Position numbers and translations under genes: made by a program. The notes under the pieces are model-generated. The model saw nothing but the letters and a program-made list of their open reading frames with translations. It searched no databases and was not told where the DNA came from. From Azotosporobacter soli (GTDB lineage Bacteria; Bacillota; Negativicutes; SG130): DNA of 64,000 bases. This document shows positions 33,968-51,800 of this stretch, piece after piece (position 1 is the stretch's first letter; each line of letters starts with the position of its first letter). The stretch is from NCBI RefSeq assembly GCF_030542965.1, contig NZ_JAUAOA010000014.1:1-64000 (forward strand), read 5' to 3'.

Positions 33968-35218
33968 TTATTCATCGTACATCGCAGCCATCTGCGCCAT
34001 ATCTGCAATAAACTGGTCGATGACCCGGCGGTTTGAGCCGCGAATCGAGCGAATGCGACCGATGAACGTTCGTAACCACGGCACCATTTCCTGCGTGTCG
34101 CTGACTTCAATGCGATAAGCGAAGATGTTGTCGCCCAACCGTTCCACCGTGCCGTGCTTGCCTTCGCGTTCCAGGCGATGCAGCACGTAGGCTTCGCTTA
34201 CTTCGTCAATCTGCAAGACCATTTCCACCTGTTCACGCCGCGAGCCGTGTCCGACAAATACGCCCCAAGACGTAGCCAAACGTTTATTCAGCGCGTCCAA
34301 CCTTTCGTCGAAGAAGGGGGCGTCGCCGAGCAGTTCCACGTTTTTGATGTAATCGAGCCGGAAGGAAAAGAAGTCGCGGCGGCGCAGGTTGTATGCCAAT
34401 AAATAGCGGCGACCGTGGCGCACGTTACTTGCGATGCGTAGCGGCAAGATCGTCTCACGCAGCGGATTATGCGAACGGTTGCTGCAGTTTTCAAAACGGA
34501 CCAAGCGTCGTGCTTGGATCGCCGCGAGCAAATCCAGCAGTACCGCGTCGTCAAGCGTGTGGAACGTGAAGAGATGGCGAAACGAAAACACATCCTCCGG
34601 CTGCCCTGCGTCGCGCCGGGCAAAATACCCAAGTACGCCAGCCGGCGTTATGGCTTCAAAAAAATGCAGCGGCGTCGCAAGCTTTTCAAGTATTGCAGGC
34701 AACTCTTCCTCGAAAGGGTTATCAGCGAGCGAGTAGAGCAGGGCTTTGCCCTGCTTTTCTTTTTTAAACAAACCCAGTGCGGCATATTCATTCAGTTTAT
34801 TGCGAACCGTCATCGCATCGGGGGCGGCAGTTTCGGAAAAACAGGCCAGGTATTCGTCGCACAGGAACGAAGTTGCTTCTGCTGCCGTAACGCCGGGGTG
34901 TTCACGCAGAATATCGAAGAGGCAAAAATGCAGCAGACAGTCGTTGTTCGTAAAGGATTTCGCTTCCCAAACAGAAAACAACGGATTTGTCGATACGTCC
35001 GCGCCGTTGGTGCGGATAAACAAATTTTTGCCGCGCGCCGTATTTTCCCATTCAATATGACCAGATAAATAGCTTTCGATCCGACGACGCTCATTATCAT
35101 AACTGCGATTGCTTTTATTCGTATAATCATTGCGGCACTTATAGCCATAAACGAGAAAATCCCGCGTATAATCACGAATTTTATCGATATTTTTAACCAA
35201 TTCACTAAACCCGGCCAT
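33968..35218 (-). CDS. WYL-domain regulator, first gene of a pair
   Basis: A 416-residue protein. The N-terminal helical region with a possible winged helix ('RDYTRDFLVYGYKCRNDYTNKSNRSYDNERRRIESYL ... AMTVRNKLNEYAALGLFKKEKQG') is followed by the WYL core ('ARRLVRFENCSNRSHNPLRETILPLRIASNVRHGRRYLLAYNLRR') and WCX part ('MVPWLRTFIGRIRSIRGSN'). The partner WYL gene starts 12 bp downstream. The pair is divergent from rtcB with about 278 bp between, so it most likely controls the rtcB-RNA-slipin-rlaP unit, taking the place that RtcR holds in enteric bacteria (inference). Confidence 0.85.
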   Translation of the reverse strand: MAGFSELVKNIDKIRDYTRDFLVYGYKCRNDYTNKSNRSYDNERRRIESYLSGHIEWENTARGKNLFIRTNGADVSTNPLFSVWEAKSFTNNDCLLHFCLFDILREHPGVTAAEATSFLCDEYLACFSETAAPDAMTVRNKLNEYAALGLFKKEKQGKALLYSLADNPFEEELPAILEKLATPLHFFEAITPAGVLGYFARRDAGQPEDVFSFRHLFTFHTLDDAVLLDLLAAIQARRLVRFENCSNRSHNPLRETILPLRIASNVRHGRRYLLAYNLRRRDFFSFRLDYIKNVELLGDAPFFDERLDALNKRLATSWGVFVGHGSRREQVEMVLQIDEVSEAYVLHRLEREGKHGTVERLGDNIFAYRIEVSDTQEMVPWLRTFIGRIRSIRGSNRRVIDQFIADMAQMAAMYDE

Positions 35219-35496: not shown

Positions 35497-36732
35497 ATGT
35501 ATGTAATGTATAACAAACAAAAAAACAAATATCCGATTAAAGTATGGCTGAGCGACAACGACGTGCTCGAAGAAGAATGCATCGAGCAGGCGACCAACCT
35601 GTCCAACCTGCCGTTTTTGCATAAATGGGTGGCCTTGATGCCCGATACGCATACAGGCAAAGGAATGCCGATCGGCGGCATCATCGCGGCGAACGACGTC
35701 ATCATCCCCAATGCGGTCGGCGTCGATATCGGTTGCGGTATGGCTTACCTGCAAACCAATCTGAACGCGGACAGCCTGAAACATACGATGACCGGCAGCG
35801 GTTCGTTGCTGCAATGCATCATCGGCGACATCCTGCGCAACGTGCCGGTTGGTTTTAAGCATCATAAAGCAAAACAAGCCTCAACTGCGATTGATGTCGC
35901 TATCGCCGACCAAGAACGTTATGCATTTGCCAAGACGCTGTTGCCGGAACTCGATGCCGGTTATTATCAGATCGGGACGCTGGGCGGCGGCAACCATTTT
36001 ATCGAACTGCAAGAAGACGACGAAGGCAAGGTTGGCATTATGCTGCATTCGGGCAGCCGTCATTTGGGCCATCAGATTTGCAAACATTTTCATGCGATTG
36101 CGCGCAAGCACAATCAAGAATGGTTCGCGGCGGTGCCGGACGAATACCAACTGGCTTTCCTGCCAGTCGGCAGCGAAGAAGGGCAATCGTACATCGCCTG
36201 GATGAACCTGGCGCTCGACTTCGCCCACGAAAACCGCAAACATATGCTGCAAGCGGTGGCGGACGTCGTCGAAAAATCCGTCAAACGCCATTTGGGAATA
36301 CAGCCGCAGTACAGCGACGAAATCAACTGCCATCATAACTATGCAGCGCTCGAAAACCATTACGACAAGAACGTTTGGGTGCATCGCAAAGGCGCGATTC
36401 GGGCGCGACTGGGCGAACGCGGCATTATTCCCGGCGCTATGGGGTCTTATAGCTACCTCGTTGAAGGCAAAGGCAATGTCGAAAGCTTCCAGTCCTGTTC
36501 GCACGGTGCGGGGCGATTGATGTCGCGTACCAAAGCCAAAGCCTCCTTCTCGGTGGAAGCGGTGATGAACGATCTGAAAGGCAGCGGCGTCGTCCTCGGC
36601 AAAGCCAAGAAAAGCGACGTGGCCGAAGAATCCCGCTATGCCTACAAGAACATCGACGACGTCATCGCCAACGAACTCGACCTGATCACGCCGGTTAAGC
36701 GGCTGAAGACGATTGGCGTCGTCAAAGGCTAA
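35497..36732 (+). CDS. rtcB: RtcB-family RNA ligase
   Basis: A 411-residue RtcB protein. Visible motifs: 'MPDTHTGKGMPIGGIIA' (Asp and His ligands), 'GVDIGCGMAYL' (metal Cys near residue 79), 'QIGTLGGGNHFIEL', 'GIMLHSGSRHLGHQI' and the guanylylation site 'FQSCSHGAGRLMSR' (His near 337). RtcB joins 2',3'-cyclic phosphate and 5'-OH RNA ends using GTP and Mn2+, repairing tRNAs and rRNA cut by toxins or stress. The length matches the bacterial short form. ATG 35497 has CAAGGAG eight bases upstream. The next element is a tRNA-like RNA, then slipin and RlaP genes, making a full RNA-repair locus. Confidence 0.93.
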   Translation: MYVMYNKQKNKYPIKVWLSDNDVLEEECIEQATNLSNLPFLHKWVALMPDTHTGKGMPIGGIIAANDVIIPNAVGVDIGCGMAYLQTNLNADSLKHTMTGSGSLLQCIIGDILRNVPVGFKHHKAKQASTAIDVAIADQERYAFAKTLLPELDAGYYQIGTLGGGNHFIELQEDDEGKVGIMLHSGSRHLGHQICKHFHAIARKHNQEWFAAVPDEYQLAFLPVGSEEGQSYIAWMNLALDFAHENRKHMLQAVADVVEKSVKRHLGIQPQYSDEINCHHNYAALENHYDKNVWVHRKGAIRARLGERGIIPGAMGSYSYLVEGKGNVESFQSCSHGAGRLMSRTKAKASFSVEAVMNDLKGSGVVLGKAKKSDVAEESRYAYKNIDDVIANELDLITPVKRLKTIGVVKG

Positions 36733-36742
36733 TCTTTTATAA

Positions 36743-36932
36743 AATACGGCTGCCATCCTCTCCTTGGGCCAAGGCGTCATCCGCCTTGCGGTGCCGGGGC
36801 ATCACCCGCGGGCATACCGGGACGATCGGCGGCTCCATATTGAAATACGGAGGTTCGACTCCTCCACCGTAACAACCTTACGGTTAGCTAAGTGGTTAAA
36901 GCATTCAAACACAGAAATCCTTTTGGGATGGG
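36743..36932 (+). ncRNA. Circularly permuted tRNA-like RNA (Y RNA/YrlA-like) in the rtcB operon
   Basis: The strand folds as a tRNA read from the middle. The anticodon-stem 3' arm TTGAA (36840-36844) leads through ATAC to a canonical T-arm (GGAGG-TTCGACT-CCTCC, 36849-36865). Acceptor arm ACCGTAA (36866-36872) then pairs perfectly with TTACGGT (36878-36884) over a 5-nt loop. T and A (as at tRNA positions 8-9) and a D-arm follow (GCT-AAGTGGTTAA-AGC, 36887-36902, with the G18G19 pair). The anticodon-stem 5' arm TTCAA (36904-36908) closes against TTGAA. Outer pairings GCTGCC/GGCGGC (36749-36754/36828-36833) and CCATCC/GGATGG (36753-36758/36926-36931) could form an extra module at the anticodon end; the two share two bases. 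Bacterial Y RNAs (YrlA) have a tRNA-mimic module and occur beside rtcB. Ends are estimates. Confidence 0.72.
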
Positions 36933-36950
36933 GTGCGAATCCCCAAGACG

Positions 36951-37167
36951 AACCTGGAACGGGGAATCTTCTTGTTGGCGACGCTGCGGCACGTCAATGC
37001 CGGAACGATGCCTCGTGCAAGTGGGGATACCGTTTTGCTTTACTGGCTCCCAAGGCGAAGCCCAGACGCGCAGCGGCGTGACTGTACTTTGCCCCCGGAA
37101 CCGGCAAAGCGAGACTCAACCGTTTGCCCGGCTATGCGATCCGTGGAAGATTCCCACGAGACAGGTT
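36951..37167 (+). ncRNA. Second structured RNA or 5' leader before the slipin gene
   Basis: A long-range helix closes 217 nt: AACCTG/CAGGTT (36951-36956 with 37162-37167) stacked on a perfect ten-pair GGGAATCTTC/GAAGATTCCC (36962-36971 with 37146-37155). Inside are CGCTGCG/CGCAGCG, the hairpin CTTTGCC-9 nt-GGCAAAG (about 37087-37109), GGCT/AGCC near 37045-37062 and CGGCA/TGCCG near 36987-37002. A short T-arm-like hairpin GGGG-TGCGAAT-CCCC (36930-36944) lies just before it. This may be a second Y-type RNA, part of one long RNA with the preceding element, or a regulatory leader of slipin. No known family is assigned. Confidence 0.5.
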
Positions 37168-37203
37168 GCTATGAAAAGAAAGAATGAGACGGAGGAATAC
37201 GTC

Positions 37204-38313
37204 ATGAAAATAATTATCAAAGAGCAAGAACGGGGTATCTGGTTCAGAGACGGAAACTACAAGGGCGTGTTGAAACCGGGCCGTCACTTCCTGCTGCCGT
37301 TCTTCGACAATAAAGTGGAAATCCTCGACGTTACTCAAGTTTTTTACCTGCAAAATTACGATCTGGAACTGTTTCTCTCCGATGAAGAACTGTGCCGTGA
37401 ACTGAGCGTCGTCGATGTAGCGGATCGCCAAATTGCCATTCATTTTATCGACGGCAAGTTCAGAGGCGTACTGGGGACAGGAAAATATGCGTTCTGGAAT
37501 GTGCTGAAACAACACCGCTTTGAAATGATCGATACCAGCCAACCGAAAATTGATGCATCAATCGACCGAAGCCTGCTCGCGCGGCCACAGTTTCGCGGCT
37601 ATTCGGTTCTGCATGACGTTGAACCTCATATGAAGGGGGTTCTGTTTTTCGACAACCAGCTGCAGCGCATCCTCGAACCGGGACGTCACTACTTCTGGAC
37701 CGGAGCTGCCAAAGTTGAAGTGGTCAAAGTCGACATGCGGGCGCGGGAAATCGAAATTAACGGACAAGAAATCATGACCGAAGACAAAGTGCCGCTACGC
37801 TTCAACTTCGTCTGCCAATACCGGATCGCCGATGCGGAAAAAAGCGTGTTGGAAGTTAAGGATTATGAACAGCAAATTTATCTGCAACTGCAAATGGTGT
37901 TGCGCGAATATGTCGGCACGCTAAAACTCGATGAACTGTTGAAGTTAAAACAAGAAATTGCAGATTACGTCCTGCATAAAATGAAAGGCAAAGAAGACGA
38001 CTATGGTGCGAAGTTCCTTTTCGCAGGCGTGAAAGACATCATTTTGCCGGGGGAAATCAAGGCCATCCTTAATACCGTGCTGGTCGCGGAAAAGAAAGCG
38101 TTGGCTAACGTCATCACCCGTCGCGAAGAAACCGCATCCACACGCAGCCTGCTGAATACGGCCAAACTGATGGATGAAAACCAAACGCTGTATCGGCTGA
38201 AAGAACTGGAGTTTCTGGAAAAGATCTGCGACAAGGTCGGCAACATCTCGCTCCAGGGCGGCGGGTTGTTGGAGCAGCTGAATGCTCTCGTTGCTGCAAA
38301 GCAATGCGGGTAA
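37204..38313 (+). CDS. Slipin / band-7 (SPFH) family protein of the RNA-repair operon
   Basis: A 369-residue protein. It begins 'MKIIIKEQERGIWFRDGNYKGVLKPGRHFLLPFFDNKVEILDVT' and repeats the same theme at 'HMKGVLFFDNQLQRILEPGRHYFWTGAAKVEVVKVDMRAREIEI'. It then enters the SPFH core ('LRFNFVCQYRIADAEKSVLEVKDYEQQIYLQLQMVLREYVGTLKLDELL') and a helical end. Unlike ordinary stomatins it has no clear N-terminal membrane anchor, which is typical of the slipin form linked to RtcB. It probably forms ring-like scaffolds. GACGGAGGAA lies before ATG 37204. Longer in-frame readings upstream would run through the structured RNA and are rejected. Confidence 0.85.
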   Translation: MKIIIKEQERGIWFRDGNYKGVLKPGRHFLLPFFDNKVEILDVTQVFYLQNYDLELFLSDEELCRELSVVDVADRQIAIHFIDGKFRGVLGTGKYAFWNVLKQHRFEMIDTSQPKIDASIDRSLLARPQFRGYSVLHDVEPHMKGVLFFDNQLQRILEPGRHYFWTGAAKVEVVKVDMRAREIEINGQEIMTEDKVPLRFNFVCQYRIADAEKSVLEVKDYEQQIYLQLQMVLREYVGTLKLDELLKLKQEIADYVLHKMKGKEDDYGAKFLFAGVKDIILPGEIKAILNTVLVAEKKALANVITRREETASTRSLLNTAKLMDENQTLYRLKELEFLEKICDKVGNISLQGGGLLEQLNALVAAKQCG

Positions 38314-39258: not shown

Positions 39259-39423
39259 GCAACTCTTGGAAGAATATCAGCTTTCTCGAATTTGATGTTT
39301 TTTCCGTTGAGCGCCAATCTTACTTATGGCGTAGATCAAAAGAAGCGATATGGAGCAGACTGCGATGTTTACGGAAAGTCTTGAGATGTGGCACTCAAGT
39401 ACAATGCAAAAAAAGGAGGACGT

Positions 39424-40224
39424 ATGGGAGAATATCAAGGAAGCATATTGGCAACATTGGAATTGCTAGGCCTTTTTATAATTTTGTGGGGGATATCAGT
39501 CTATTTATGGGAGAAAATTATTTCGCCGCGCGTGTGCAAAATTCGAGACGCGATGATTATGAAGTTTGTGCAAATAATGAGAAAAAATAGATGGGGACGC
39601 TGGAGTGTTGTTGCAACAGAAGGAATATTTTTTGCATTGTTAATAGCAATAATTTGTAAGCGAAATAGCTGGGATTGGTTATTTGTTCTATTAATAATCA
39701 TATTATCGATTGTGACTCCATTGAGTTATAAATTGAGGATGGAAATAGAACGAGGATTTTCCTTGATCAAACAACTTCAAAAAACATTTAATCGTCATGA
39801 GTATATAGGAACGCGAGTGACTTTGCTTTTTGAAGCAATGATGAGCGGCATTGCATGTGTAGGGATTCCGCAGTATCTTACTCTTGTAATATTAAAGTTG
39901 GATTGGCCGGACTTTATGCAAATGACATTGCTAGTATCATATGCGGTTTATTCGAATCTATGGATCTATATGAAAATGCCGTTAGTCTTTCAAGATAAAA
40001 AAAACGTGGAGAATGCGCGCAAATTTTTGACGTATATAATTGTACTGCTGTTTGTGCTTCAACAATTTGAAAATAAGTTTTATGCGTTGAAAGAGGGGGG
40101 GCCACCGGATGTTCAAGGGGTTGTATATGTTATTGTAGGCGTGGTGTTTTTCGCCTTTGAGCGTGTCATTAAAACGATGGCAGATGATTATGCGGAATAT
40201 CAAAAACACTGCCAAAAAGCCTAG
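39424..40224 (+). CDS. Hypothetical membrane protein
   Basis: A 266-residue protein with about seven predicted spans: 'ATLELLGLFIILWGISVYLW', 'GRWSVVATEGIFFALLIAIIC', 'WDWLFVLLIIILSIVTPLSY', and others to 'VVYVIVGVVFFAFERVI'. AAAAAGGAGGACGT lies before ATG 39424. It is strongly AT-rich against the GC-richer rlaP before it, so it was probably acquired. No motif recognised. The next ORF, also a small membrane protein, starts 92 bp later; the two could form a membrane effector unit, but that is only suggested by position. Confidence 0.7.
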   Translation: MGEYQGSILATLELLGLFIILWGISVYLWEKIISPRVCKIRDAMIMKFVQIMRKNRWGRWSVVATEGIFFALLIAIICKRNSWDWLFVLLIIILSIVTPLSYKLRMEIERGFSLIKQLQKTFNRHEYIGTRVTLLFEAMMSGIACVGIPQYLTLVILKLDWPDFMQMTLLVSYAVYSNLWIYMKMPLVFQDKKNVENARKFLTYIIVLLFVLQQFENKFYALKEGGPPDVQGVVYVIVGVVFFAFERVIKTMADDYAEYQKHCQKA

Positions 40225-41195: not shown

Positions 41196-41247
41196 GAACG
41201 GAAAGCGTAAAGTCTTGAATGGAAAATTACAATTTTGGAGGATGGTT

Positions 41248-42159
41248 ATGATTATCAGAAGAAGAAAGATAAGAAAAGCGGAGAAGTATTTAAATGAATT
41301 TGCAGAAGGTTGTGAAATTACGGTAGCATTGACGGATATTGAAAATCATCGTGCTAGATTAATAGCATGTGGATTTGATGCTCAAATTCAAGTAGGGGAT
41401 CGTGTTTGTCCGGCAGCTGTTTTTGGTCCAGTGACAAAATTCAATTCAGAGGGGAGGGATGTAGTTCGAAGAGATTTACCAATGGAAACGGCGTATCGAT
41501 TGCAGGATTGGAGTATCACTGATTGGCATGGACAGGAACATAGTGGTACGGCTTATGTTCCATATCAGCGATATCCAAGAGAGCGAATTGCTCCTTTAGG
41601 ATATGAACTGACCGTAATGGAAAATACGATGCACAATAAACTGATTACATCCGAGTTTATCGCTGTTCGGCCGGAGAATATGGATGCCATTAAAATTATG
41701 ATTAACCTGTTTCTTGAACTCTTCGGCGAGTGCGAAATACTTACGCATAACCTTGTTCCAAATATAAGAGGTAATATTCGAAGGCTTCAATGGGAAATGA
41801 TACCGCCGGGAGATTACCCATGGGAACGGATAAGAGGTAGAATTAATGCAGAAACAGAGCATGTTCGAAGAAATAGAAGAGCAATGCTGAGCCGATTTGA
41901 AACGATAAATAATTATGGACCGAATTGCATTGCAATAGGCCGCGCCGGCTTTAAAGGGTATGTTGCGTTTTGTTTTAGTGATAAAAACATTAATATTTTG
42001 GAAAGCTCATACCCTGATAACGCTACATATATATTTGATGATAGTTGGGAGCAATTAACTCAGTTAACAAAAAAGCAAATCATTACAGAAAATCTTGCTC
42101 GTGCTAGAGTGGTCCATAATAGAGAGTGGGAACAACAGATTATGCGACTATTGCAGTAG
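41248..42159 (+). CDS. Hypothetical protein
   Basis: A 303-residue soluble protein. The N-terminus is basic ('IIRRRKIRKAEKYLNEFAEGCEITVALTDIENHRARL'). A beta-rich stretch follows ('GDRVCPAAVFGPVTKFNSEGRDVVRRDLPMETAYRLQDWSITDWHGQEHSGTAYVPYQRYPRERI'), then a mixed C-terminal part ('YGPNCIAIGRAGFKGYVAFCFSDKNINILESSYPDNATYIFDDSWEQL'). The tail 'GYVAF.F......LES..PDNATYIF..' recurs in orphan proteins of restriction and defence islands, but I cannot name a domain. TTGGAGGA lies six bases before ATG 41248. It follows the rtcB remnant directly. Confidence 0.65.
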   Translation: MIIRRRKIRKAEKYLNEFAEGCEITVALTDIENHRARLIACGFDAQIQVGDRVCPAAVFGPVTKFNSEGRDVVRRDLPMETAYRLQDWSITDWHGQEHSGTAYVPYQRYPRERIAPLGYELTVMENTMHNKLITSEFIAVRPENMDAIKIMINLFLELFGECEILTHNLVPNIRGNIRRLQWEMIPPGDYPWERIRGRINAETEHVRRNRRAMLSRFETINNYGPNCIAIGRAGFKGYVAFCFSDKNINILESSYPDNATYIFDDSWEQLTQLTKKQIITENLARARVVHNREWEQQIMRLLQ

Positions 42160-42236: not shown

Positions 42237-42432
42237 AAAAATAAATATATAGAAGTAAATTTTGACAGGCATAAATCGTCATTTAAAAGACAAACCGAAT
42301 AAATTCACAAATGGGAAGGTAATTTATATATTGAACGCCAATATAATATTACCATAATGCTTACAAGCATAAATGATTTGCAGCGATCAAGTGATAACGG
42401 AATTGGGCATAAATTACGCAGGAGGTCTCGGC

Positions 42433-45400
42433 ATGAGTAAGGGCAACTTTGAGTTTTTAAAAGAGCAATGGCCAATACTAGCGCAGCTAGGGGCTTTAGC
42501 TGAAAAAAATATAAAAGAAGACTCTAACACCACACTGATTAAGTTGGGGATGTTTGCCGAGACTTTGGTCAAGTATATGTTTGCGTATGACAATTTAGAA
42601 GAACCATCTGATGGGCGGTTAGCCAGTAGGATTATGATATTAAAACGAAATGATCTTATAACGGGAGATATCTGCGACGTATTCTATGCGCTGCGTACGA
42701 AGCGTAATGTAGCGGCTCATGAAGTGTACACATCAGAGACGGATGCACGGCGGTTAACAAAATTGGCATATAAACTAGCGGTTTGGTTTATGCAGACATA
42801 TGGGGATTGGAAATTCGAGCCGCAAGCCTATGTCGAACCTACATTGCAATCTGCTGCGGACAAAATTGCGCAACTGGAAAATGAAAAAAATGAACTGACG
42901 AAAGCCTATGAAGATGAAAATAAAAAACTGAAAGAAACATTGGACTTATTGAAGGTGCAGGCGACTGCGGAAACTAGCAAACAGCGAAAGGAAAAATCAA
43001 AATACGCGGCAAAGTTTTTTCATCTTGACGAAACCGAGACGCGGAAAATCATCGACGAAAAATTGCGCGTAGCTGGTTGGGAAGTCGATACGGATACGTT
43101 GCGTTACTCGAACGGCACTCGCCCGGTGAAAAATAAAAACATGGCGATTGCCGAGTGGCCGACTGATTCGCGTAAGGGAAATCATGGCCGCGCCGACTAT
43201 GCGCTGTTCGTCGGGTTGAAGCTGGTCGGGATTGTCGAAGCGAAGCGTGCCATCAGGGATGTCGCGGCTGACCTGGGACAGAGCAAGGATTATGCGCGTT
43301 TTATCAAAAAAGAACACCTGCAATATGTCTGCGGAAAATGGGACGATGGCTATGTACCTTTCTTGTTTTCCACTAATGGTCGCGACTATTTAAAACAGCT
43401 TGAGACCAAATCGGGCATATGGTTTCTTGATGCCAGGCAGGTGACGAATCATGCCAAAGCGCTGCAAGGCTGGTACACGCCGGAAGGGCTAGCGAAGCTG
43501 CTCGAGTTTGATGAGCAGGAAGCCAATGCACGGTTAAAACGGGAAGACACCGACTACTTAAGCAGCAAGACCGGTCTCGCGCTGCGCGAATACCAGATCA
43601 AGGCGATCGAAGCGATCGAAGCGGCGATCGAAGACGGCCGGCGCAGCGTCTTAATCGCGATGGCGACCGGCACCGGCAAGACGCGGACCATCGTCGGCAT
43701 CCTGTACCGCTTGCTGAAAGCCAAACGCTTCAAACGCATCCTGTTCCTCGTCGATCGCAAAGCCTTGGGCAACCAAGCAGAAGACACGTTTAAGGAAGTC
43801 GTCATCGAGGGTTTGGAAAAGTTTTATGACATTTATGACATCAAAGGAATTGAAGATATCAAGCCGGAACCGGAAACGAAGATTCATATTTCCACCGTGC
43901 AGGGGATGGTGCGTCGGGTGCTGTGCAGCGAGGAACTGGCCGACGCTCCGAAGGTCGACGATTATGACTGCATCGTGATCGACGAGGCGCATCGCGGCTA
44001 TATCTTGGACAAGGAAATGGGCGAAGTCGAGTTGGAAGTCCGCGACCAGAGCGACTATGTCAGCAAATACACCCAGGTCATCGAATATTTTGACGCGCTG
44101 AAAATTGCGCTGACTGCGACGCCGGCGCTACATACCAAAGCGCTGTTCGGCGAGCCGGTCTATAAATACAGCTATCGCGAAGCGGTAATCGACGGCTATC
44201 TGGTGGACCATGAACCGCCGCACCAACTGACGACGCAGTTGAAGGACGACGGCATCAAATTTGCCAAGGGCGAATCGGTGGATACCTATGACATGGCCAG
44301 CGGCACGGTCGTTACGATTGACGACCTGCCGGACGAACTGAACTTTGACATTGAAAGCTTCAATAAACGGGTGATCAACGAAAACTTCAACCGCGTCGTG
44401 CTGGCGGAAATCGCGCAAGACATCGACCCGGAAGGCGACGCCAAGACGCTGATTTTTGCTGCCACTGATGCCCATGCCGACATGATCGTCGCGCTGTTGA
44501 AGGAAATTTACGGTGATATGGGCCTTGATGTCTGCGATGACGCGATCCAAAAGATCACCGGTTCGCTGAAAGATCCGCTGCTGGCGATCAAACAGTTTAA
44601 AAACGAGCAATACCCGAATATTGCGGTCACGGTCGATCTGCTGTCCACCGGGATCGACGTGCCGAAAATTTGCAACCTGGTCTTCTTGCGCCGCGTCAAA
44701 TCGCGGATTCTGTATGAGCAAATGCTCGGCCGGGCGACGCGTCTGTGCGGCGAGATTGGCAAGACGCATTTTACGATTTATGATGCGGTCGGATTGTACG
44801 AAGTGCTCGAAGACGCCAGCAACATGAAGCCGGTGGTGAAAAACGTCAGCGTCGACTTTGCCACGCTGGTCGATGAGCTGACTAGCTATTCGACGCCGGA
44901 ACAAAAACAGGCGGCGCTTGAGCAAATTATTGCCAAGCTGCAACGCAAGAAGCGCCAGCTTGACGACGCACAGCTGGCGCAGTTCCGCCATCTGGCGGGC
45001 GGCCAGACGCCGGACGAATTAATCCAGCATATTAAGCTCGGCAGCCTGGACAGTGTGATCCGCGAGCTGGGCGAACGGGTGCAGCTGATCGACTTCCTCG
45101 ACCGCAAAGCCGGCGGCAGTAACGGCATCGTCATATCGACCCATGCGGATGTATTGACCGGCCATGGCCGCGGCTACGGTGTCAGGGAAACGCGCCCGGA
45201 AGACTATATCGAGAGCTTCAGCCGCTATATCAAAGAAAACCTGAATAAGATTCCGGCGCTGGAAATCGTCTGCACGCGGCCGAAGGAACTGACGCGCCAG
45301 GCGCTGAAAGAACTGAAGATTGAACTGGACCTGCAGGGCTATAATGAAATGAACCTCAACACCGCCTGGCGCAGCTTGAAAAATGAAGACATCGCCGCCG

Positions 45401-45696
45401 ACATCATCAGCTTCATCCGCCAACAGGCGCTGGGCAGGGCGCTCTTAAACCATGAACAGCGGGTGAAAAACGCGGTGGGCAAAGTAAAACAGCTGCGCCC
45501 CTGGACCAAGATCCAGCTGGGCTGGCTGGAGCGGATCGAAAAACAGTTGCTGCTCGAGAGCGTCATCGATAAACACATTTTCAACGCCGGCGCATTTAAG
45601 AGCCAGGGCGGCTTTGCCAAGATTGACAAAATCTTTGCCGGGCAGCTGGACCAAGTGATCGACGAGATCAATGAACATTTGTATGAAGTGGGCTAG
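42433..45696 (+). CDS. hsdR: Type I restriction enzyme R subunit with N-terminal DUF4145 domain
   Basis: A 1,087-residue protein. Residues about 1-130 are a DUF4145 domain ('LRTKRNVAAHEVYTSETDARRLTKLAYKLAVWF'), followed by a coiled coil (about 145-185). The nuclease core comes next ('HGRADYALFVGLKLVGIVEAKRAIRD', the D...ExK site), then SF2 helicase motifs ('VLIAMATGTGKTRTIVGILY', 'DCIVIDEAHRGYI', 'IALTATPALHTKALFG') and an EcoEI-type C-terminal domain. It cuts DNA after ATP-driven translocation in complex with HsdM and HsdS. AGGAGG lies before ATG 42433. The first about 600 bp are AT-rich against a GC-richer rest, a sign that the DUF4145 part was joined later. Confidence 0.93.
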   Translation: MSKGNFEFLKEQWPILAQLGALAEKNIKEDSNTTLIKLGMFAETLVKYMFAYDNLEEPSDGRLASRIMILKRNDLITGDICDVFYALRTKRNVAAHEVYTSETDARRLTKLAYKLAVWFMQTYGDWKFEPQAYVEPTLQSAADKIAQLENEKNELTKAYEDENKKLKETLDLLKVQATAETSKQRKEKSKYAAKFFHLDETETRKIIDEKLRVAGWEVDTDTLRYSNGTRPVKNKNMAIAEWPTDSRKGNHGRADYALFVGLKLVGIVEAKRAIRDVAADLGQSKDYARFIKKEHLQYVCGKWDDGYVPFLFSTNGRDYLKQLETKSGIWFLDARQVTNHAKALQGWYTPEGLAKLLEFDEQEANARLKREDTDYLSSKTGLALREYQIKAIEAIEAAIEDGRRSVLIAMATGTGKTRTIVGILYRLLKAKRFKRILFLVDRKALGNQAEDTFKEVVIEGLEKFYDIYDIKGIEDIKPEPETKIHISTVQGMVRRVLCSEELADAPKVDDYDCIVIDEAHRGYILDKEMGEVELEVRDQSDYVSKYTQVIEYFDALKIALTATPALHTKALFGEPVYKYSYREAVIDGYLVDHEPPHQLTTQLKDDGIKFAKGESVDTYDMASGTVVTIDDLPDELNFDIESFNKRVINENFNRVVLAEIAQDIDPEGDAKTLIFAATDAHADMIVALLKEIYGDMGLDVCDDAIQKITGSLKDPLLAIKQFKNEQYPNIAVTVDLLSTGIDVPKICNLVFLRRVKSRILYEQMLGRATRLCGEIGKTHFTIYDAVGLYEVLEDASNMKPVVKNVSVDFATLVDELTSYSTPEQKQAALEQIIAKLQRKKRQLDDAQLAQFRHLAGGQTPDELIQHIKLGSLDSVIRELGERVQLIDFLDRKAGGSNGIVISTHADVLTGHGRGYGVRETRPEDYIESFSRYIKENLNKIPALEIVCTRPKELTRQALKELKIELDLQGYNEMNLNTAWRSLKNEDIAADIISFIRQQALGRALLNHEQRVKNAVGKVKQLRPWTKIQLGWLERIEKQLLLESVIDKHIFNAGAFKSQGGFAKIDKIFAGQLDQVIDEINEHLYEVG

Positions 45697-45791
45697 TTAA
45701 CGATGCTATAATGAAAAGACCCTGGCGATGCAAAGCCGCGTTGCCGGGTTCTTTTCCGGTTAGGAAGCTATGAAATAAGGATGGATACAAC

Positions 45792-47210
45792 ATGAACAAT
45801 GCGGAAATCGTCGCCAAACTCTGGAATCTGTGCAATGTGTTGCGCGATGACGGAATCACCTATCATCAATACGTCAGCGAGCTGACTTATATCTTGTTTT
45901 TGAAAATGGCCAAGGAGACTGAAACCGAAGAATCGATTCCGGCCGACTATCGTTGGGACAAGCTGGCGGCCAAAGAAGGCGTCGAACTGAAAGCGTTCTA
46001 TCGCCGCCTGCTGCTCGACCTGGGCGAGCACAGCCAGGGGAGGATTCGGCAAATTTATGCCGGTGCAAATTCCAACATTGATGAGCCGAAAAATCTGGAA
46101 AAGATCATCAAATCGATCGACGCGCTCGATTGGTACAGCGCCAAGGAAGAAGGCCTAGGCAACCTTTACGAAGGATTGCTGGAGAAAAACGCTAACGAGA
46201 AAAAATCCGGTGCCGGGCAATATTTCACGCCGCGGCCGCTGATCAATGTGATGGTCCAGCTGCTCGATCCGCAGCCGGGCGAGCGCTGCAACGACCCGGC
46301 TTGCGGCACGTTCGGCTTCATGATTGCCGCCGATCAGCACATAAAAAACCGCACCGACAAGCTGTTCGACCTGCCGGAGGCGGCGCAGGAGTTTCAACGC
46401 AAGCAAGCGTTCAGCGGCGTCGAGCTAGTCCACGACACGCACCGTCTGGCGCTGATGAATGCAATGCTGCACGACATCGACGGCGACATTTTGCTCGGCG
46501 ATACGCTGTCCAGCCTCGGCGCAAAGTGCAAGGATTATGACGTGGTGCTGACCAATCCGCCGTTCGGCACCAAGCAGGGCGGCGAGCGGGCGACGCGCGA
46601 CGACCTTGTCTATCTGACGTCCAACAAGCAGCTGAACTTCTTGCAGCACATTTACCGTTCGCTGAAACGAAGCGGCCAGGCCCGAGCCGCGGTCGTCTTG
46701 CCGGACAACGTGCTGTTCCAGGACAACGACGGCCAAAACATCCGCGCCGACCTGATGGACAAGTGCGACCTGCACACGATCCTCCGATTGCCGACCGGCA
46801 TCTTTTACGCGCAGGGAGTCAAGACCAACGTCCTGTTCTTCACCCGCGGCAAGACCGAGAAGGACAACACGAAAGAAGTCTGGTTCTACGACCTGCGGAC
46901 CAACATGCAAAACTTCGGCAAGACCAATCCGCTGAGCGAAGCGCATTTTGCAGACTTCATCACCGCTTATACCGCCGCCGACCGCGGCGCAGTGCAGGAC
47001 GAACGCTGGAATAAATTTACGCGTGACGAAATCGCCGCCAAGGCCAACAGTCTCGACCTCGGCCTGATCCGCGACGCCAGCATCGTCGACTACGAAGACC
47101 TGCAAGATCCGATCAGTAGCGGCGAAGAAATCGCCGACCAGCTGGAAGAAGCGATCGATCTGATCCGCAGCGTCGTCAAGGAACTGAAACATTTGGGCGG
47201 TGGCCGGTAA
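45792..47210 (+). CDS. hsdM: Type I restriction-modification methyltransferase subunit
   Basis: A 472-residue N6-adenine methyltransferase. The N-terminal helical domain 'LWNLCNVLRDDGITYHQYVSELTYILFLKMAKE' is followed by 'GAGQYFTPRPLINVMVQLLDPQPGERCNDPACGTFGFMI' (SAM motif I as DPACGTFGF) and 'DVVLTNPPFGTKQGG' (catalytic NPPF). With HsdS it methylates host sites and with HsdR it forms the restriction complex. Ribosome site AATAAGGATGG is weak, so it may depend on readthrough from hsdR 95 bp upstream. Its stop overlaps the hsdS start by one base. Confidence 0.95.
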   Translation: MNNAEIVAKLWNLCNVLRDDGITYHQYVSELTYILFLKMAKETETEESIPADYRWDKLAAKEGVELKAFYRRLLLDLGEHSQGRIRQIYAGANSNIDEPKNLEKIIKSIDALDWYSAKEEGLGNLYEGLLEKNANEKKSGAGQYFTPRPLINVMVQLLDPQPGERCNDPACGTFGFMIAADQHIKNRTDKLFDLPEAAQEFQRKQAFSGVELVHDTHRLALMNAMLHDIDGDILLGDTLSSLGAKCKDYDVVLTNPPFGTKQGGERATRDDLVYLTSNKQLNFLQHIYRSLKRSGQARAAVVLPDNVLFQDNDGQNIRADLMDKCDLHTILRLPTGIFYAQGVKTNVLFFTRGKTEKDNTKEVWFYDLRTNMQNFGKTNPLSEAHFADFITAYTAADRGAVQDERWNKFTRDEIAAKANSLDLGLIRDASIVDYEDLQDPISSGEEIADQLEEAIDLIRSVVKELKHLGGGR

Positions 47211-48604
47211 TGGCGAAGAATCAGGCATTATCACTGGAGGAAAAACTGGAGCAGGCGCTGGTGAAGAGTGAAGAACAACCATATGAAATATCGGCAAATT
47301 GGTGCTGGATAAAAATGGACTCATTGATAGAACTCATTTCAGGAAGAGACTTGCCCATATCTGATTGTAATGATGAAAAAAAAGGCATTCCTTATATTTT
47401 AGGTGCTAGCAATATAGCCAATGGCGATTTTTTTGTCAATAGATGGACACAAAAACCATCTGTTCTCGGGTTACAAGGTGATGTTCTTCTTTCTGTGAAA
47501 GGTACTGTAGGTAAAATTGCGTTGCTAAATGAAGAGAAAATTCATCTTAGTCGACAAATCATGTCATTAAGAGCAAAAAAATCGATATATAATTTGTTTC
47601 TAATGCATTTTTTGAATACCTATATTGGGAAACTAAATGAAGTGTCAAGAGGCTTGATACCTGGTGTATCGAGAGTTGATATTTTAAGTATAGCAGTACC
47701 GCTCCCGCCAATTAGTGAGCAATACCGACTTGTGGAAAAAATCGAATCCCTGTTCAGCAAGCTTGACCGCGCCAAGGAACTCGCGCAAACGGCGCTGGAT
47801 TCATTCGCCAGCCGCAAAGCCGCGATCCTGCATCAGGCGTTTTCCGGCGAGCTGACGCGGAAGTGGCGGGAGGAGAATGGAGTATTTGATGTTGATAAAG
47901 AAATCGATGAACAGGAGTCTTTTAATATTAAAATCCCTGATAGTTGGGAATGGACTGAAGTTAGTAAGATTGGGAAGGTAAAAGGGGGGAAAAGATTACC
48001 AAAAGGTGAAAAATTAGTGAAATTTGATACGGGCTTTCCGTATATTAAAGCAGGTGACTTAAAGAACGGAACCGTTTTATATAATAATGTTGAATATATA
48101 ACAGAAGAGATTAGAAGTAAAATTAAAAACTATACGGTAAAAGAAAATGATGTTTATATCACGATTGTTGGAGCTTGTATTGGGGATGTCGGAGTGGTTC
48201 CAGCAGAGATGGATGGCGCAAATCTTACAGAAAACGCTGCAAAAATAACGGATCTCAAATGTGATAGTAAATATTTGGCGTTGGCATTGAGTAGTAATTT
48301 ATTGCAAGCGCAAATCAAAAATAGCATTGCTTCTGCAACGCTTGGGAAATTATCATTGCAGAATATAAACAAAATTACAGTCCCTCTTCCAGGAACAAGA
48401 GAACAGCAAGAAATCGTTCGCATTCTCGATCACCTGCTGGAAAACGAGCAAACAGCCAGCGAACTGTGCGACGTGATCGAGCGAATCGAGCAGCTAAAAA
48501 AAGCGATCCTGGCCCGCGCGTTTCGCGGCGAGCTGGGGACGAACGATCCGGCGGAGGAGAGTGCGCTGGAATTGTTGAAAACCGTGCTGCAGGAGCGCGA
48601 CTAA
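47210..48604 (+). CDS. hsdS: Type I restriction-modification specificity subunit
   Basis: A 464-residue protein with two target-recognition domains (residues about 20-160 and 230-400). Each is followed by a conserved helical spacer: 'LVEKIESLFSKLDRAKELAQTALDSFASRKAAILHQAFSGELTRKWR' and 'EIVRILDHLLENEQTASELCDVIERIEQLKKAILARAFRGELG'. It chooses the bipartite DNA target for HsdM/HsdR. The two recognition domains are AT-rich while the spacers are GC-richer like hsdM, a clear mosaic that reflects domain swapping between alleles. The ATG lies in the TAATG of the hsdM stop. Confidence 0.95.
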   Translation: MAKNQALSLEEKLEQALVKSEEQPYEISANWCWIKMDSLIELISGRDLPISDCNDEKKGIPYILGASNIANGDFFVNRWTQKPSVLGLQGDVLLSVKGTVGKIALLNEEKIHLSRQIMSLRAKKSIYNLFLMHFLNTYIGKLNEVSRGLIPGVSRVDILSIAVPLPPISEQYRLVEKIESLFSKLDRAKELAQTALDSFASRKAAILHQAFSGELTRKWREENGVFDVDKEIDEQESFNIKIPDSWEWTEVSKIGKVKGGKRLPKGEKLVKFDTGFPYIKAGDLKNGTVLYNNVEYITEEIRSKIKNYTVKENDVYITIVGACIGDVGVVPAEMDGANLTENAAKITDLKCDSKYLALALSSNLLQAQIKNSIASATLGKLSLQNINKITVPLPGTREQQEIVRILDHLLENEQTASELCDVIERIEQLKKAILARAFRGELGTNDPAEESALELLKTVLQERD

Positions 48605-48814
48605 AACATACATGCAAGAAAAAGGACGTAGCTACGGAGCGAGAAGCGCTTCGACGGGCTGCGTCCTTTGCTGCGTATAGTGGAAGACATAAAATGTAAT
48701 TCGTGGGAACAAAGTGGGAAGGGATAGGACGAAAGGTGTAGAAAGTATATTGTGATAAAGCGTTACAAGCTCGACGATAACAGGCTGAATCGTGAGAGGA
48801 AAGGACTAGATCAA

Positions 48815-51800
48815 ATGCCGGAAGGAAATGCAGTACCAGCGCAGTTAAAAAAGCGGATTGATGAATGGCGCAGTCGTCTGATTGACCTATCGAAGCGGAA
48901 TCAACTGTTGAATTATCGCAAAAATAAAAGCTCCACGTTGGAATTTCGCGAGCAGGATCTGAATAAGATGTATGAGCACTTGGCTGGCGACGGTGCGTCA
49001 TGGAAAGTGTTTATGCCGGCAGAGCCAGAACTGGAAGAACAGCAACTTGAACTGTTGCCGGAAAAAGAGAAAAGCAAGCAGTTGGATTTGCTGACCGACA
49101 CGGTGCAAGCGAAAAAAGACGAATTGATCAGCGGCGAAACCGATCCAACGGTCTTGAAGCGAATCCTTACCAACCTGTTTCGCAAATCGCGCGAAGAGTA
49201 CCAAGAGCGGGGCGTTCATGTGCTGCATTTGGGTCTTGGGATGCTGAAATGGTCGGATCCGTTAGGCGGCGCGAAGCAGGATTCGTTTTCGTCGCCGCTC
49301 TTGTTGTGTCCAGTGACGTTGAACCGGGAGAATGCCAACAAGCCGTTTGAGCTGGCGTTGGCAGAGGAAGATCTGATCTTGAATCCGGCGTTGGCTGTAA
49401 AGCTTAAAAAAGACTATCAACTGGAACTGCCGGAACTGGATGAAGCGGAAAGCGAGCTACCGGTAGGCGACTATTTGGCGGCTGTGCGGGCTTGGTTGCC
49501 GCAGGACGGCTGGGAGGTCGAGCCGCTGGCGGTGCTGGGGATGTTTTCATTTGAAAAGCTCGGTATGTATCATGACTTGGAGAAGAACATCGCACATCTT
49601 GCCGTTCACCCGGCAATTCTTGGGCTGAGCGGCGTATCTCGCGATGGTTTGGCTGGCGGAGAGGTGGCGGATGTGCCGCTGGACGAGTGCCAAAAGCCGG
49701 AGGAAACATATCAGATACTTGATGCCGACAGCAGCCAGCAGCAATGCATCCAGGCGGTCTTGCAAGGTCGCAGCTTGGTGCTGCAAGGGCCGCCGGGCAC
49801 GGGCAAGAGCCAGACTATCGCCAATATCATTGCCGAATTCTTGGCGCGGAAGAAGACAGTGCTGTTTGTCAGTGAAAAGATGGCCGCGCTCGAAGTGGTG
49901 TATAAAAGGCTGGATGATCGCAATCTGGGACATTACTGTCTGGAACTGCACAGCCGCAAGGCGAATAAAAAAGAAGTGCTGGCGGAGTTGAAAGAGGCGG
50001 CGGAACAGTCGCCGAAGCCGCAGTCGGTGCCGAGCGCGGCCGATTATCAGAAGCTGCAGCGCTTGCGCCAAGAGTTAAATGATTATGTGGCGGCGTTACA
50101 TGAAGAACGTCTGGAGCTAGGGGGCAGTGTTTATGATGTCATGGCGCTGGTGGCCCGACATGTCAAAGCGCCGCTATTGACGCTGGGCGTCGAGCCGGAA
50201 CGACTGACGAGCGAAAACTGCCAACGCTGGCAGACGGAAATGAAAGCCCTGAGTCGGGTTTGGGGTGTTGTGACGGAAGGCGATGATTTTCCTTGGCGGG
50301 GAGCTAAGGAAACGGTGTTCCGGCCGGAAGTGCGGGAAAAATGGATGAAGCTGTTGCGCGGCCTTCAGGAAACGCTGACGGATTTAAGGGGCGATGCCAA
50401 TGCATACAGCCAAAAGACTGGTCTGCCGCTAGCGGTGACACTGGAAGATGTGGATTGGCTGATTCAGGTTGCCGAGCTAATCGATCAGGGCGTCGTGCCG
50501 GCGGCAATTTGGCTGACTACGGACGGAATGGCGGACATTATGGCGGAAGCCAAACGGTACGGCGAATGCAGCCGCCTATACTGGCAAGAAAAAGAGGCGC
50601 TGGAACAGACGGTAGAGAAAGAGTATTTTTCTTTGCCGGAAGAGTTTGAGGCGGAATTGCAAGCGGCCTGGGATGCGGTGCGGTCAATGTTTCCCAAACT
50701 GGATGCTGACGGACGTGCCTACAAAACGCAGTATCGGCATCTGGCCGATTTTGCGGCGGCGTTGCCGCGTGAAGTGGAGGAATGCCGACAATATGCGACG
50801 GGGCTTTTAGCAGCGACCGGAGTAAGTGCTGTGCCGGAAACGCCGCAGGAATTGTTCCGTCTGGCGGAGATTATGGAACATTGCTTTAGCGAGTTGAAAC
50901 CGGAGAAAGCATGGCTGAACAGTAAGCGATGCAAAGAAGTATCCGGCATTGTTGAGGCGGTTAAACCATTGTATGCGGAGTACAATCGGCGGCGGGAAGA
51001 GTTGCTGGTTCGCTATGAAGAAACTATTTTTGACGTGGATGCAGTGCGTTTGCTGGAATCATTCAATCATTGGTCATACCAGGGCGTGTTCAAGTTTTTC
51101 AATCCAGGGTATTATGCGGCGAAAAAAGAGATTGTGCGCTGTACGAAAGACTTTTGCCTGCCTGATACCGTAGTTGCAGATCTGCTGTCAGTCCGCGCGC
51201 TACAAGCTTTAAGCGAAAAACTGGCAACGCGTCGGTCTGAGACAAGTTCGGCTCTGGGCAGCTATTTCTGCGATGCTGCGACGCGGTTTGACGAGGTAGA
51301 AGCGGCCTTGAAGCAGGCGGAAGGATTGCTGGAGCTGAACGATGGCGAATCCTTTGTGGAGTCATTGGCGGGCTACTTGTCAACGGAGGCCGCGTTGCCT
51401 AAGAGTTATCAAGCTGGCGTGGAAGCATTGCTGAAGCAGCGGCAGAGGTGGCAATGTGAACTGCAGGAATTGAACGCGTGTGTAGTTCAGGAAAACTGGC
51501 TGGGCAGTGGCGTGCCGTTCTGGCAATTGTCGTTTGGCCTCTTGGAAGAATGGAGTCGGACGCGCAGCGATGGATTACGCGAGGCGGCAGTGTTGTTGGA
51601 CGACTTGTTGCAGCGTTATGGCCACGCGCCAGATACTGTCAAGGGAATGCAGGATGATTTGCGGTGCCTTGCGCGCCTGCGCGGCATTCAGGCGGAACTT
51701 CAGCGTGAGGAAAATCGGTTGCAGGATCATTTCGGCCATCGTTTCACGGGCGTGACGACGCGATGGGATGAAGTGATGGAGGCGATCAAATGGACGTTGC

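What the first reader, a model, noticed from the sequence alone, without database searches (positions are those of the whole stretch)
36840..36908. Circularly permuted tRNA mimic in the rtcB-slipin gap
Order along the strand: anticodon-stem 3' arm TTGAA, 4-nt variable region, canonical T-arm with TTCGACT loop, acceptor 3' arm ACCGTAA, 5-nt loop, acceptor 5' arm TTACGGT (7 of 7 pairs), then TA, D-arm with a GG-containing loop, one A, anticodon-stem 5' arm TTCAA (5 of 5 pairs). Every stem of a tRNA is present with normal spacing, but the acceptor ends are joined by a loop and the chain opens in the anticodon arm. This cannot be a normal tRNA. A tRNA-mimic module is known in bacterial Y RNAs (YrlA); the exact match to that family is my recollection, not a search result.
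Basis: partly seen in the sequence, partly recalled or inferred. Interest (0 to 1): 0.86.

Follow-up and report, generated by a model that had tools for sequence, protein, structure and literature searches.

The report
Permuted tRNA mimic upstream of slipin
Between two RNA-repair genes lies a conserved, folded RNA of about 390 bases that carries an inside-out copy of a tRNA; relatives sit in front of the same scaffold gene in very different bacteria, including about 30% of complete E. coli genomes, where the RNA appears to be unannotated.

Summary
It is not chance (0 of 4000 shuffles of the gap) and not a tRNA-gene remnant: in 21 relatives every stem covaries, and pairing collapses when arms are swapped between relatives (acceptor 5.4 of 6 pairs against 3.0). 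The module is part of an RNA of about 390 nt (about 36771-37155) with 5' hairpins, a second T-arm and a covarying 3' domain. It lies directly upstream of slipin in WYL / slipin / RtcB / RlaP RNA-repair loci: 68 of 85 slipin loci show a T-arm plus acceptor hairpin there, against 1-2 of 85 in controls. Bacteroidota chain two or three modules, the last often with a real anticodon loop. The YrlA reading holds for the module's shape, not for membership: 20.6 bits against a cut-off of 69, no Ro protein, a much larger RNA. I recall, but could not check, that Burroughs and Aravind (2016) reported a tRNA-like RNA as partner of SPFH/Band-7 repair proteins, so I call this a new variant of a known kind. 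Most likely it is slipin's RNA partner, presenting a tRNA-shaped docking knob; a cis-acting leader remains possible.

The parts
36771..36787 (+). P1, small 5' hairpin AAGGCG/CGCCTT
   Evidence: sequence; a small hairpin precedes P2 in relatives too, by inspection
36789..36820 (+). P2, 5' hairpin CGGTGCC...GGGCATACCGG with the conserved internal loop UGC / G(U/C)AU(A/G)
   Evidence: strict form found in 51 of 86 loci from Bacillota, Bacteroidota and Burkholderia; the window's own copy is too irregular for that strict search and is assigned by alignment to L016/L017/L013
36840..36908 (+). Module 1: circularly permuted tRNA mimic (anticodon 3' arm, variable region, T-arm, acceptor hairpin, D-arm, anticodon 5' arm)
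   Evidence: model R1 64.6 bits (the window sequence is among those the model was built from)
36917..36929 (+). Short hairpin ATCC/GGAT before the second T-arm
   Evidence: present in L016, L017 and L013 as ATCCC-TTT-GGGAT and ATTCCC-TTT-GGGAAT
36930..36944 (+). Second T-arm GGGG-TGCGAAT-CCCC (remnant or variant of a second tRNA-like module)
   Evidence: L016, L017 and L013 have GGGGTTCGACTCCCC here; in Desulfosporosinus and Bacteroidota this place holds a full second module
36962..37155 (+). 3' domain, closed by the long-range helix 36962-36972 / 37145-37155 (GGGAATCTTCT / GGAAGATTCCC, 11 pairs); contains the conserved GGATACC motif
   Evidence: closing helix of 9-14 pairs at about the same place in most of 24 loci; GGATACC-type motif in 61 of 85 loci against 5 in controls
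35497..36732 (+). rtcB (PF01139), RNA ligase
   Evidence: Pfam 384 bits
37204..38313 (+). slipin (Band_7/SPFH, PF01145); highest 19-residue hydropathy 1.35, so no clear transmembrane segment
38479..39258 (+). RlaP nucleotidyltransferase (PF10127, RNA repair pathway DNA polymerase beta family)
   Evidence: 315 bits
32960..33955 (-). WYL-domain regulator 1
   Evidence: PF13280; WYL pair conserved beside the RNA in Bacillota
33968..35218 (-). WYL-domain regulator 2
   Evidence: PF13280

Best explanation
It is a structured noncoding RNA of about 390 nt that belongs to the slipin-RtcB-RlaP RNA-repair system, encoded in the same direction as slipin and directly in front of it. Shown here: its fold is conserved and covaries; its core is one or more tRNA bodies whose acceptor end is sealed by a hairpin and whose anticodon arm opens into the rest of the RNA; and it keeps its place before slipin across phyla. 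Inferred: it works like the bacterial Y RNA paired with Ro. The 5' and 3' domains bind the oligomeric slipin scaffold, while the tRNA-shaped knob (which cannot be charged or given a CCA tail) docks or gates a protein that handles tRNA (RtcB, RlaP, PNPase or a tRNA-modifying enzyme), so that tRNAs cut under stress or by toxins are brought to the ligase. In Enterobacteria the RNA and slipin are probably made under RtcR/sigma-54 control, as the rtc operon is; in Bacillota the WYL proteins probably take that role.
For: Covariation: 21 module sequences aligned by sequence alone, 89.5% of cells paired against 66.5% shuffled; covariation score 0.680 against 0.229 (0/500), at most 0.21 when partners are slid; all 7 acceptor pairs show changes on both sides. 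Swap test: acceptor arms pair 5.42 of 6 with their own partner, 2.99 with another module's; anticodon arms 4.39 of 5 against 3.44; 0 of 20,000 permutations reach either. Place: T-arm plus acceptor hairpin upstream of slipin in 68 of 85 loci, 2 of 85 downstream of the start codon, 1 of 85 on the reverse strand. Company: WYL, slipin, RtcB, RlaP. Long RNA: P2, 3' domain and closing helix shared. E. coli and Citrobacter: 15 of 16 bases of a sigma-54-like site TGGCACGCTTCTsGCA are identical just upstream of the RNA, with rtcR divergent from slipin in Citrobacter. The closing helix ends about 48 nt before the slipin start, leaving the Shine-Dalgarno sequence free. The Y RNA analogy (tRNA-like part binds PNPase, stem binds Ro) is from PMC8394870.
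Against: No RNA-seq, binding or structural data: transcription, processing and any contact with slipin are inferred. The RNA always lies 5' of slipin at a short distance, which a cis-acting leader would explain equally well. The tRNA part varies: Enterobacteria keep only a T-arm and acceptor hairpin, many Clostridia have a reduced D-arm, Photobacterium and Burkholderia have units in normal tRNA order, and Sporomusa L015 lacks the module; so no tRNA feature beyond T-arm plus acceptor is general. In loci where no rtcB was seen the contig may be cut, so the RNA-rtcB link is only partly tested.
Confidence: 0.47

Rival explanations
1. Cis-acting leader of slipin. The RNA is the 5' UTR of slipin mRNA; its tRNA-shaped part is bound, modified or cut by tRNA-handling enzymes or toxins, and this changes slipin expression, so that the leader senses tRNA damage.
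For: Always upstream of slipin, same strand, ending some 30-100 nt before the start codon; kept upstream of slipin wherever rtcB sits; in E. coli and Citrobacter the likely promoter lies just before the RNA.
Against: No convincing terminator (one terminator-like site in the gap, shuffles give 0.8 on average), and the Shine-Dalgarno sequence lies free beyond the closing helix. Size and multi-domain build resemble RNP RNAs more than leaders.
Confidence: 0.32
2. Decoy or tripwire for anticodon nucleases. The tRNA-like modules draw tRNA-cutting toxins; where an anticodon loop is present it is cut instead of cellular tRNA and RtcB reseals it.
For: In Bacteroidota and Photobacterium the last unit carries a local anticodon hairpin, 11 of 14 perfect (5 pairs, 7-nt loop), 10 of 14 with U33, nine different triplets; arrays of up to 15 tRNA genes lie beside it in some Bacteroidota; RtcB and RlaP are tRNA-repair enzymes.
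Against: Module 1 has no anticodon loop, and in the window and in Enterobacteria no anticodon loop was found at all; Hughes et al. (PMC7790460) saw no fragments of Salmonella YrlA under conditions where tRNAs were cut.
Confidence: 0.13
3. Remnant of tandem or duplicated tRNA genes: the space between two copies of one tRNA, in decay.
For: Gaps between duplicate tRNA genes in this genome also fit the permuted layout; a tRNA-Gly pair scores 59.5 bits with model R1.
Against: Compensatory changes in all four stems over long divergence; acceptor loops mostly of 3-7 nt without CCA; no outer tRNA halves; the same place before slipin in several phyla.
Confidence: 0.03
4. A true bacterial Y RNA (YrlA family) working with a Ro protein.
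For: Same permuted T-arm / acceptor / D-arm layout; RF02553 is the best Rfam match.
Against: 20.6 bits against a cut-off of 69; no TROVE gene in this genome or in 22 of 25 other carriers; length and flanking domains differ.
Confidence: 0.03

Closest known systems
SPFH/Band-7-associated tRNA-like RNA of RNA-repair systems (Burroughs and Aravind 2016, NAR 44:8525; recalled from its abstract, paper not held here)
   Same: A tRNA-like RNA described as the cognate RNA of an SPFH/Band-7 scaffold in RNA-repair operons with RNA ligases and the RlaP nucleotidyltransferase; very probably this same RNA.
   Different: I could not read the paper.
Bacterial Y RNA YrlA (RF02553; structure PDB 6CU1 as cited in PMC8394870)
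   Same: T-arm, closed acceptor hairpin and D-arm in permuted order; anticodon arm opens into the rest of the RNA; found in rtc RNA-repair operons.
   Different: Ours is about 390 nt rather than 90-150 nt, has no Ro partner, scores far below the family cut-off, has a second T-arm and a 3' domain, and is tied to slipin.
Circularly permuted tRNA genes of red algae and archaea (own knowledge)
   Same: The 3' half precedes the 5' half.
   Different: Those are processed into working tRNAs; here the acceptor arms are joined by a short loop without CCA, no tRNA can be predicted, and the module is embedded in a larger RNA.
Anabaena trn operon regulated by TrcR (PMC10272220)
   Same: A spare tRNA set, rtcB and a slipin gene answer to translational stress together, as with the tRNA arrays beside some Bacteroidota loci here.
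   Different: No permuted RNA is reported there; the genes are dispersed.

Membership tests
YrlA Y RNA (RF02553) | Permuted tRNA-like module: T-arm, acceptor hairpin, D-arm | tested here: met
   cmscan alignment to model positions 30-81; covariation
YrlA Y RNA (RF02553) | Score at or above the family's gathering score (69 bits) | tested here: not met
   20.6 bits in the window; 31-37 bits in relatives
YrlA Y RNA (RF02553) | Ro/TROVE protein as partner | tested here: not met
   no PF05731 in the window's genome, nor in 22 of 25 other carrier genomes
YrlA Y RNA (RF02553) | Length 90-150 nt with a stem made by the 5' and 3' ends | tested here: not met
   conserved structure runs from about 36771 to 37155, with separate 5' hairpins and a 3' domain
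YrlA Y RNA (RF02553) | tRNA-type modifications (pseudouridine in T-loop, dihydrouridine in D-loop) | not testable with these tools
   T-loop and D-loop letters are present; modification needs experiment
SPFH/Band-7 cognate tRNA-like RNA (Burroughs and Aravind 2016) | tRNA-like RNA encoded next to an SPFH/Band-7 gene in an RNA-repair locus | tested here: met
   68 of 85 slipin loci; rtcB and RlaP neighbours
SPFH/Band-7 cognate tRNA-like RNA (Burroughs and Aravind 2016) | Sequence or structure match to the RNA described in that paper | not testable with these tools
   paper not held; no Rfam 15 family reaches its threshold in the window
Canonical tRNA gene | 5' to 3' tRNA order with CCA-competent 3' end | tested here: not met
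   ARAGORN finds none in the window; acceptor arms joined by a 5-nt loop
Circularly permuted tRNA gene | Processed into a functional tRNA | not testable with these tools
   unlikely: no anticodon in the window's module and no CCA; would need RNA sequencing

The most novel reading that the evidence does not exclude
The RNA is a modular tRNA-mimic scaffold, different in use from Y RNA, that strings one to three permuted tRNA bodies together, some with authentic and varied anticodon loops, as bait or sensor for tRNA-cutting toxins; it reports damage to the slipin-RtcB-RlaP machine and is reset by RtcB ligation.
Probability: 0.13. Interest if true: 0.87.

Novelty: new variant of a known kind. Interest (0 to 1): 0.64.

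Why it matters
Only a few RNAs are known to imitate tRNA with the chain order rearranged. This one recurs from Bacillota and Bacteroidota to Proteobacteria, in front of slipin, and a reduced form is present, apparently unannotated, in about 30% of complete E. coli genomes (1624 of 5426), so it can be tested in a tractable host. It gives the poorly understood slipin of RtcB repair loci a likely RNA partner, and its range of forms (minimal T-arm plus acceptor, full permuted body, chains, units in normal order) offers a natural experiment on which part of the tRNA shape matters.

Tried and rejected
Chance: rejected by shuffles. Tandem-tRNA remnant: considered seriously because YrlA and R1 models both match clusters of tandem tRNA genes; rejected by covariation and by the swap test. 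Use of the R1 score alone as proof: dropped for the same reason. YrlA membership: rejected on score, Ro absence and length. Coding sequence: an open frame runs through part of the gap in this window (36892-38313), but stem covariation across relatives makes a coding role unlikely; I did not run a formal coding test. Terminator or sigma-70 promoter in the gap: none convincing. Phages: no slipin relative in the phage collection. Literature: nine searches found no paper on a slipin-linked RNA; Burroughs and Aravind 2016, Chen et al. 2014 and Sim et al. 2020 are not held. A first attempt at locating D-arms failed through a greedy pattern and was redone. L011 and L012 were first read on the wrong strand, corrected. 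Clostridial modules were left out of the swap test because their D-arm register differs; with them included the acceptor result is 4.56 against 2.65.

Full report
Check of the observation. ARAGORN finds no tRNA in the window. A strict descriptor of the whole module finds one place in the 64 kb on both strands, and none in 4000 dinucleotide shuffles of the rtcB-slipin gap. The tertiary signature letters of tRNA are also there by inspection: U8/A9 between acceptor and D-arm, A14, GG in the D-loop, a variable region ending in C, and a TTCGA T-loop.

A trap that had to be cleared first. Rfam's YrlA model matches the window at 20.6 bits (cut-off 69), but in the same genome it matches other places as well or better, and the eight best of these lie in clusters of tandem tRNA genes, where the 3' half of one tRNA is followed by the 5' half of the next. 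A covariance model built here (R1) has the same weakness: 64.6 bits for the window, 59.5 for a pair of duplicate tRNA-Gly genes. A score is therefore not enough; the question is whether the joined arms covary.

Relatives. A slipin search in 250 genomes of the class gave six genomes with a close relative, the window's own included; a search of GTDB contigs gave 80 loci. The neighbourhood is stable: two WYL regulators, the RNA, slipin, rtcB, often RlaP. rtcB may lie before or after, but the RNA region is directly before slipin. Within 720 nt upstream of slipin, 68 of 85 loci have a T-arm followed by an acceptor hairpin, against 2 of 85 for the same length downstream of the start codon and 1 of 85 for the reverse strand.

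Covariation. Modules were located by T-arm and D-arm only. The acceptor arms, taken in fixed register, form 5.42 of 6 pairs with their own partner and 2.99 when swapped between modules (33 modules, 30 distinct 3' arms). The anticodon arms of the 23 first or inner modules form 4.39 of 5 against 3.44. No permutation of 20,000 reached either value. Clostridial modules were left out there because their D-arm differs; with them the acceptor means are 4.56 and 2.65. On a sequence-only alignment of 21 modules, 89.5% of cells pair (66.5% shuffled), the covariation score is 0.680 (0.229 shuffled; at most 0.21 with partners slid by 1-3), and 18 of 21 pairs show changes on both sides, including all seven acceptor pairs. 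The anticodon helix is in the Bacteroidota register in that count, which undercounts rows such as the window's.

The rest of the RNA. Upstream are a small hairpin P1 and a hairpin P2 with an unusual internal loop, UGC facing G(U/C)AU(A/G), found in strict form in 51 of 86 loci including Bacillota, Bacteroidota and Burkholderia. Downstream of module 1 the window has a short hairpin and a second T-arm; Desulfosporosinus has a full second module here, and Bacteroidota have chains of two or three. The 3' domain carries a GGATACC motif (61 of 85 loci, 5 in controls) and is closed by a helix of 9-14 pairs that lies at about the same place in most of 24 Bacillota loci (score 12.2 against 9.8 when swapped). 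In the window this is 36962-36972 with 37145-37155, so the structured RNA ends about 48 nt before the slipin start codon.

Variation in form. In Bacteroidota the first module is closed by the long-range anticodon stem, while the last unit instead has a local anticodon hairpin, that is, it is permuted in the variable loop; 11 of 14 such hairpins (one from Photobacterium) are perfect and the triplets vary. In Photobacterium and Burkholderia, units stand in normal tRNA order and ARAGORN calls some of them tRNAs. In E. coli and Citrobacter only the T-arm and acceptor hairpin remain, with a compensatory change between the two species (by inspection). 1624 of 5426 complete E. coli genomes match the slipin locus with this RNA region; the listed records show only slipin annotated. 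Just upstream of the RNA in both species is a sigma-54-like site with 15 of 16 bases identical, and in Citrobacter rtcR is divergent from slipin; this suggests, but does not prove, RtcR control.

Comparison with known families. The module has the YrlA layout but is not a member of that family: score, Ro partner and size all fail. Three Chitinophaga or related genomes do have a TROVE gene elsewhere. Pfam names the neighbouring nucleotidyltransferase RlaP, a family credited to Burroughs and Aravind's work on RNA-repair systems (PMC6514570, PMC7824862). From memory, the abstract of their 2016 paper says that SPFH/Band-7 modules have a novel tRNA-like molecule as cognate RNA. I could not obtain that paper.

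Mechanism. What is shown: a conserved fold, a sealed acceptor end, an opened anticodon arm, a fixed place before slipin in a repair locus. What is inferred: that the RNA is slipin's partner and that its tRNA-shaped part docks a tRNA-handling protein, as YrlA does for PNPase (PMC8394870). The fixed place 5' of slipin fits a cis-acting leader almost as well, so I give the partner model 0.47 and the leader model 0.32. The bait idea is attractive where anticodon loops exist but cannot be general, since the window, Enterobacteria and module 1 have none.

Noticed in passing
window 42373-54442: A complete type I restriction-modification system (HsdR, HsdM, HsdS) followed by a large helicase-nuclease matching PADLOC candidate PDC-S37 and Hhe lies just downstream of the RNA-repair locus, so the repair genes sit beside defence genes.
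   Followed up: partly
L061 427-1993; L078 2455-3630; L081 2582-3987: Bacteroidota slipin loci carry arrays of 9-15 tRNA genes covering many isotypes, a few kb upstream of the RNA, like a spare tRNA set beside the repair genes.
   Followed up: partly
L095 3677-3691; L096 3475-3489; L098 3561-3575; L101 1679-1693: Sigma-54-like promoter motif immediately upstream of the RNA in E. coli, Burkholderia, Photobacterium (weaker) and Citrobacter.
   Followed up: partly
L015 (Sporomusa acidovorans), about 5700-6000: This close relative has no rtcB and no tRNA module before slipin; only the 3' domain seems to be left, as if module and rtcB were lost together.
   Followed up: no
window 39415-40221 and 41242-42156: Two proteins between RlaP and the restriction system match no Pfam or PADLOC family.
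   Followed up: no
Rfam RF02553 in the window's genome (G000): The YrlA model scores clusters of ordinary tandem tRNA genes at up to 36.9 bits, a general source of false leads for sub-threshold YrlA matches.
   Followed up: yes
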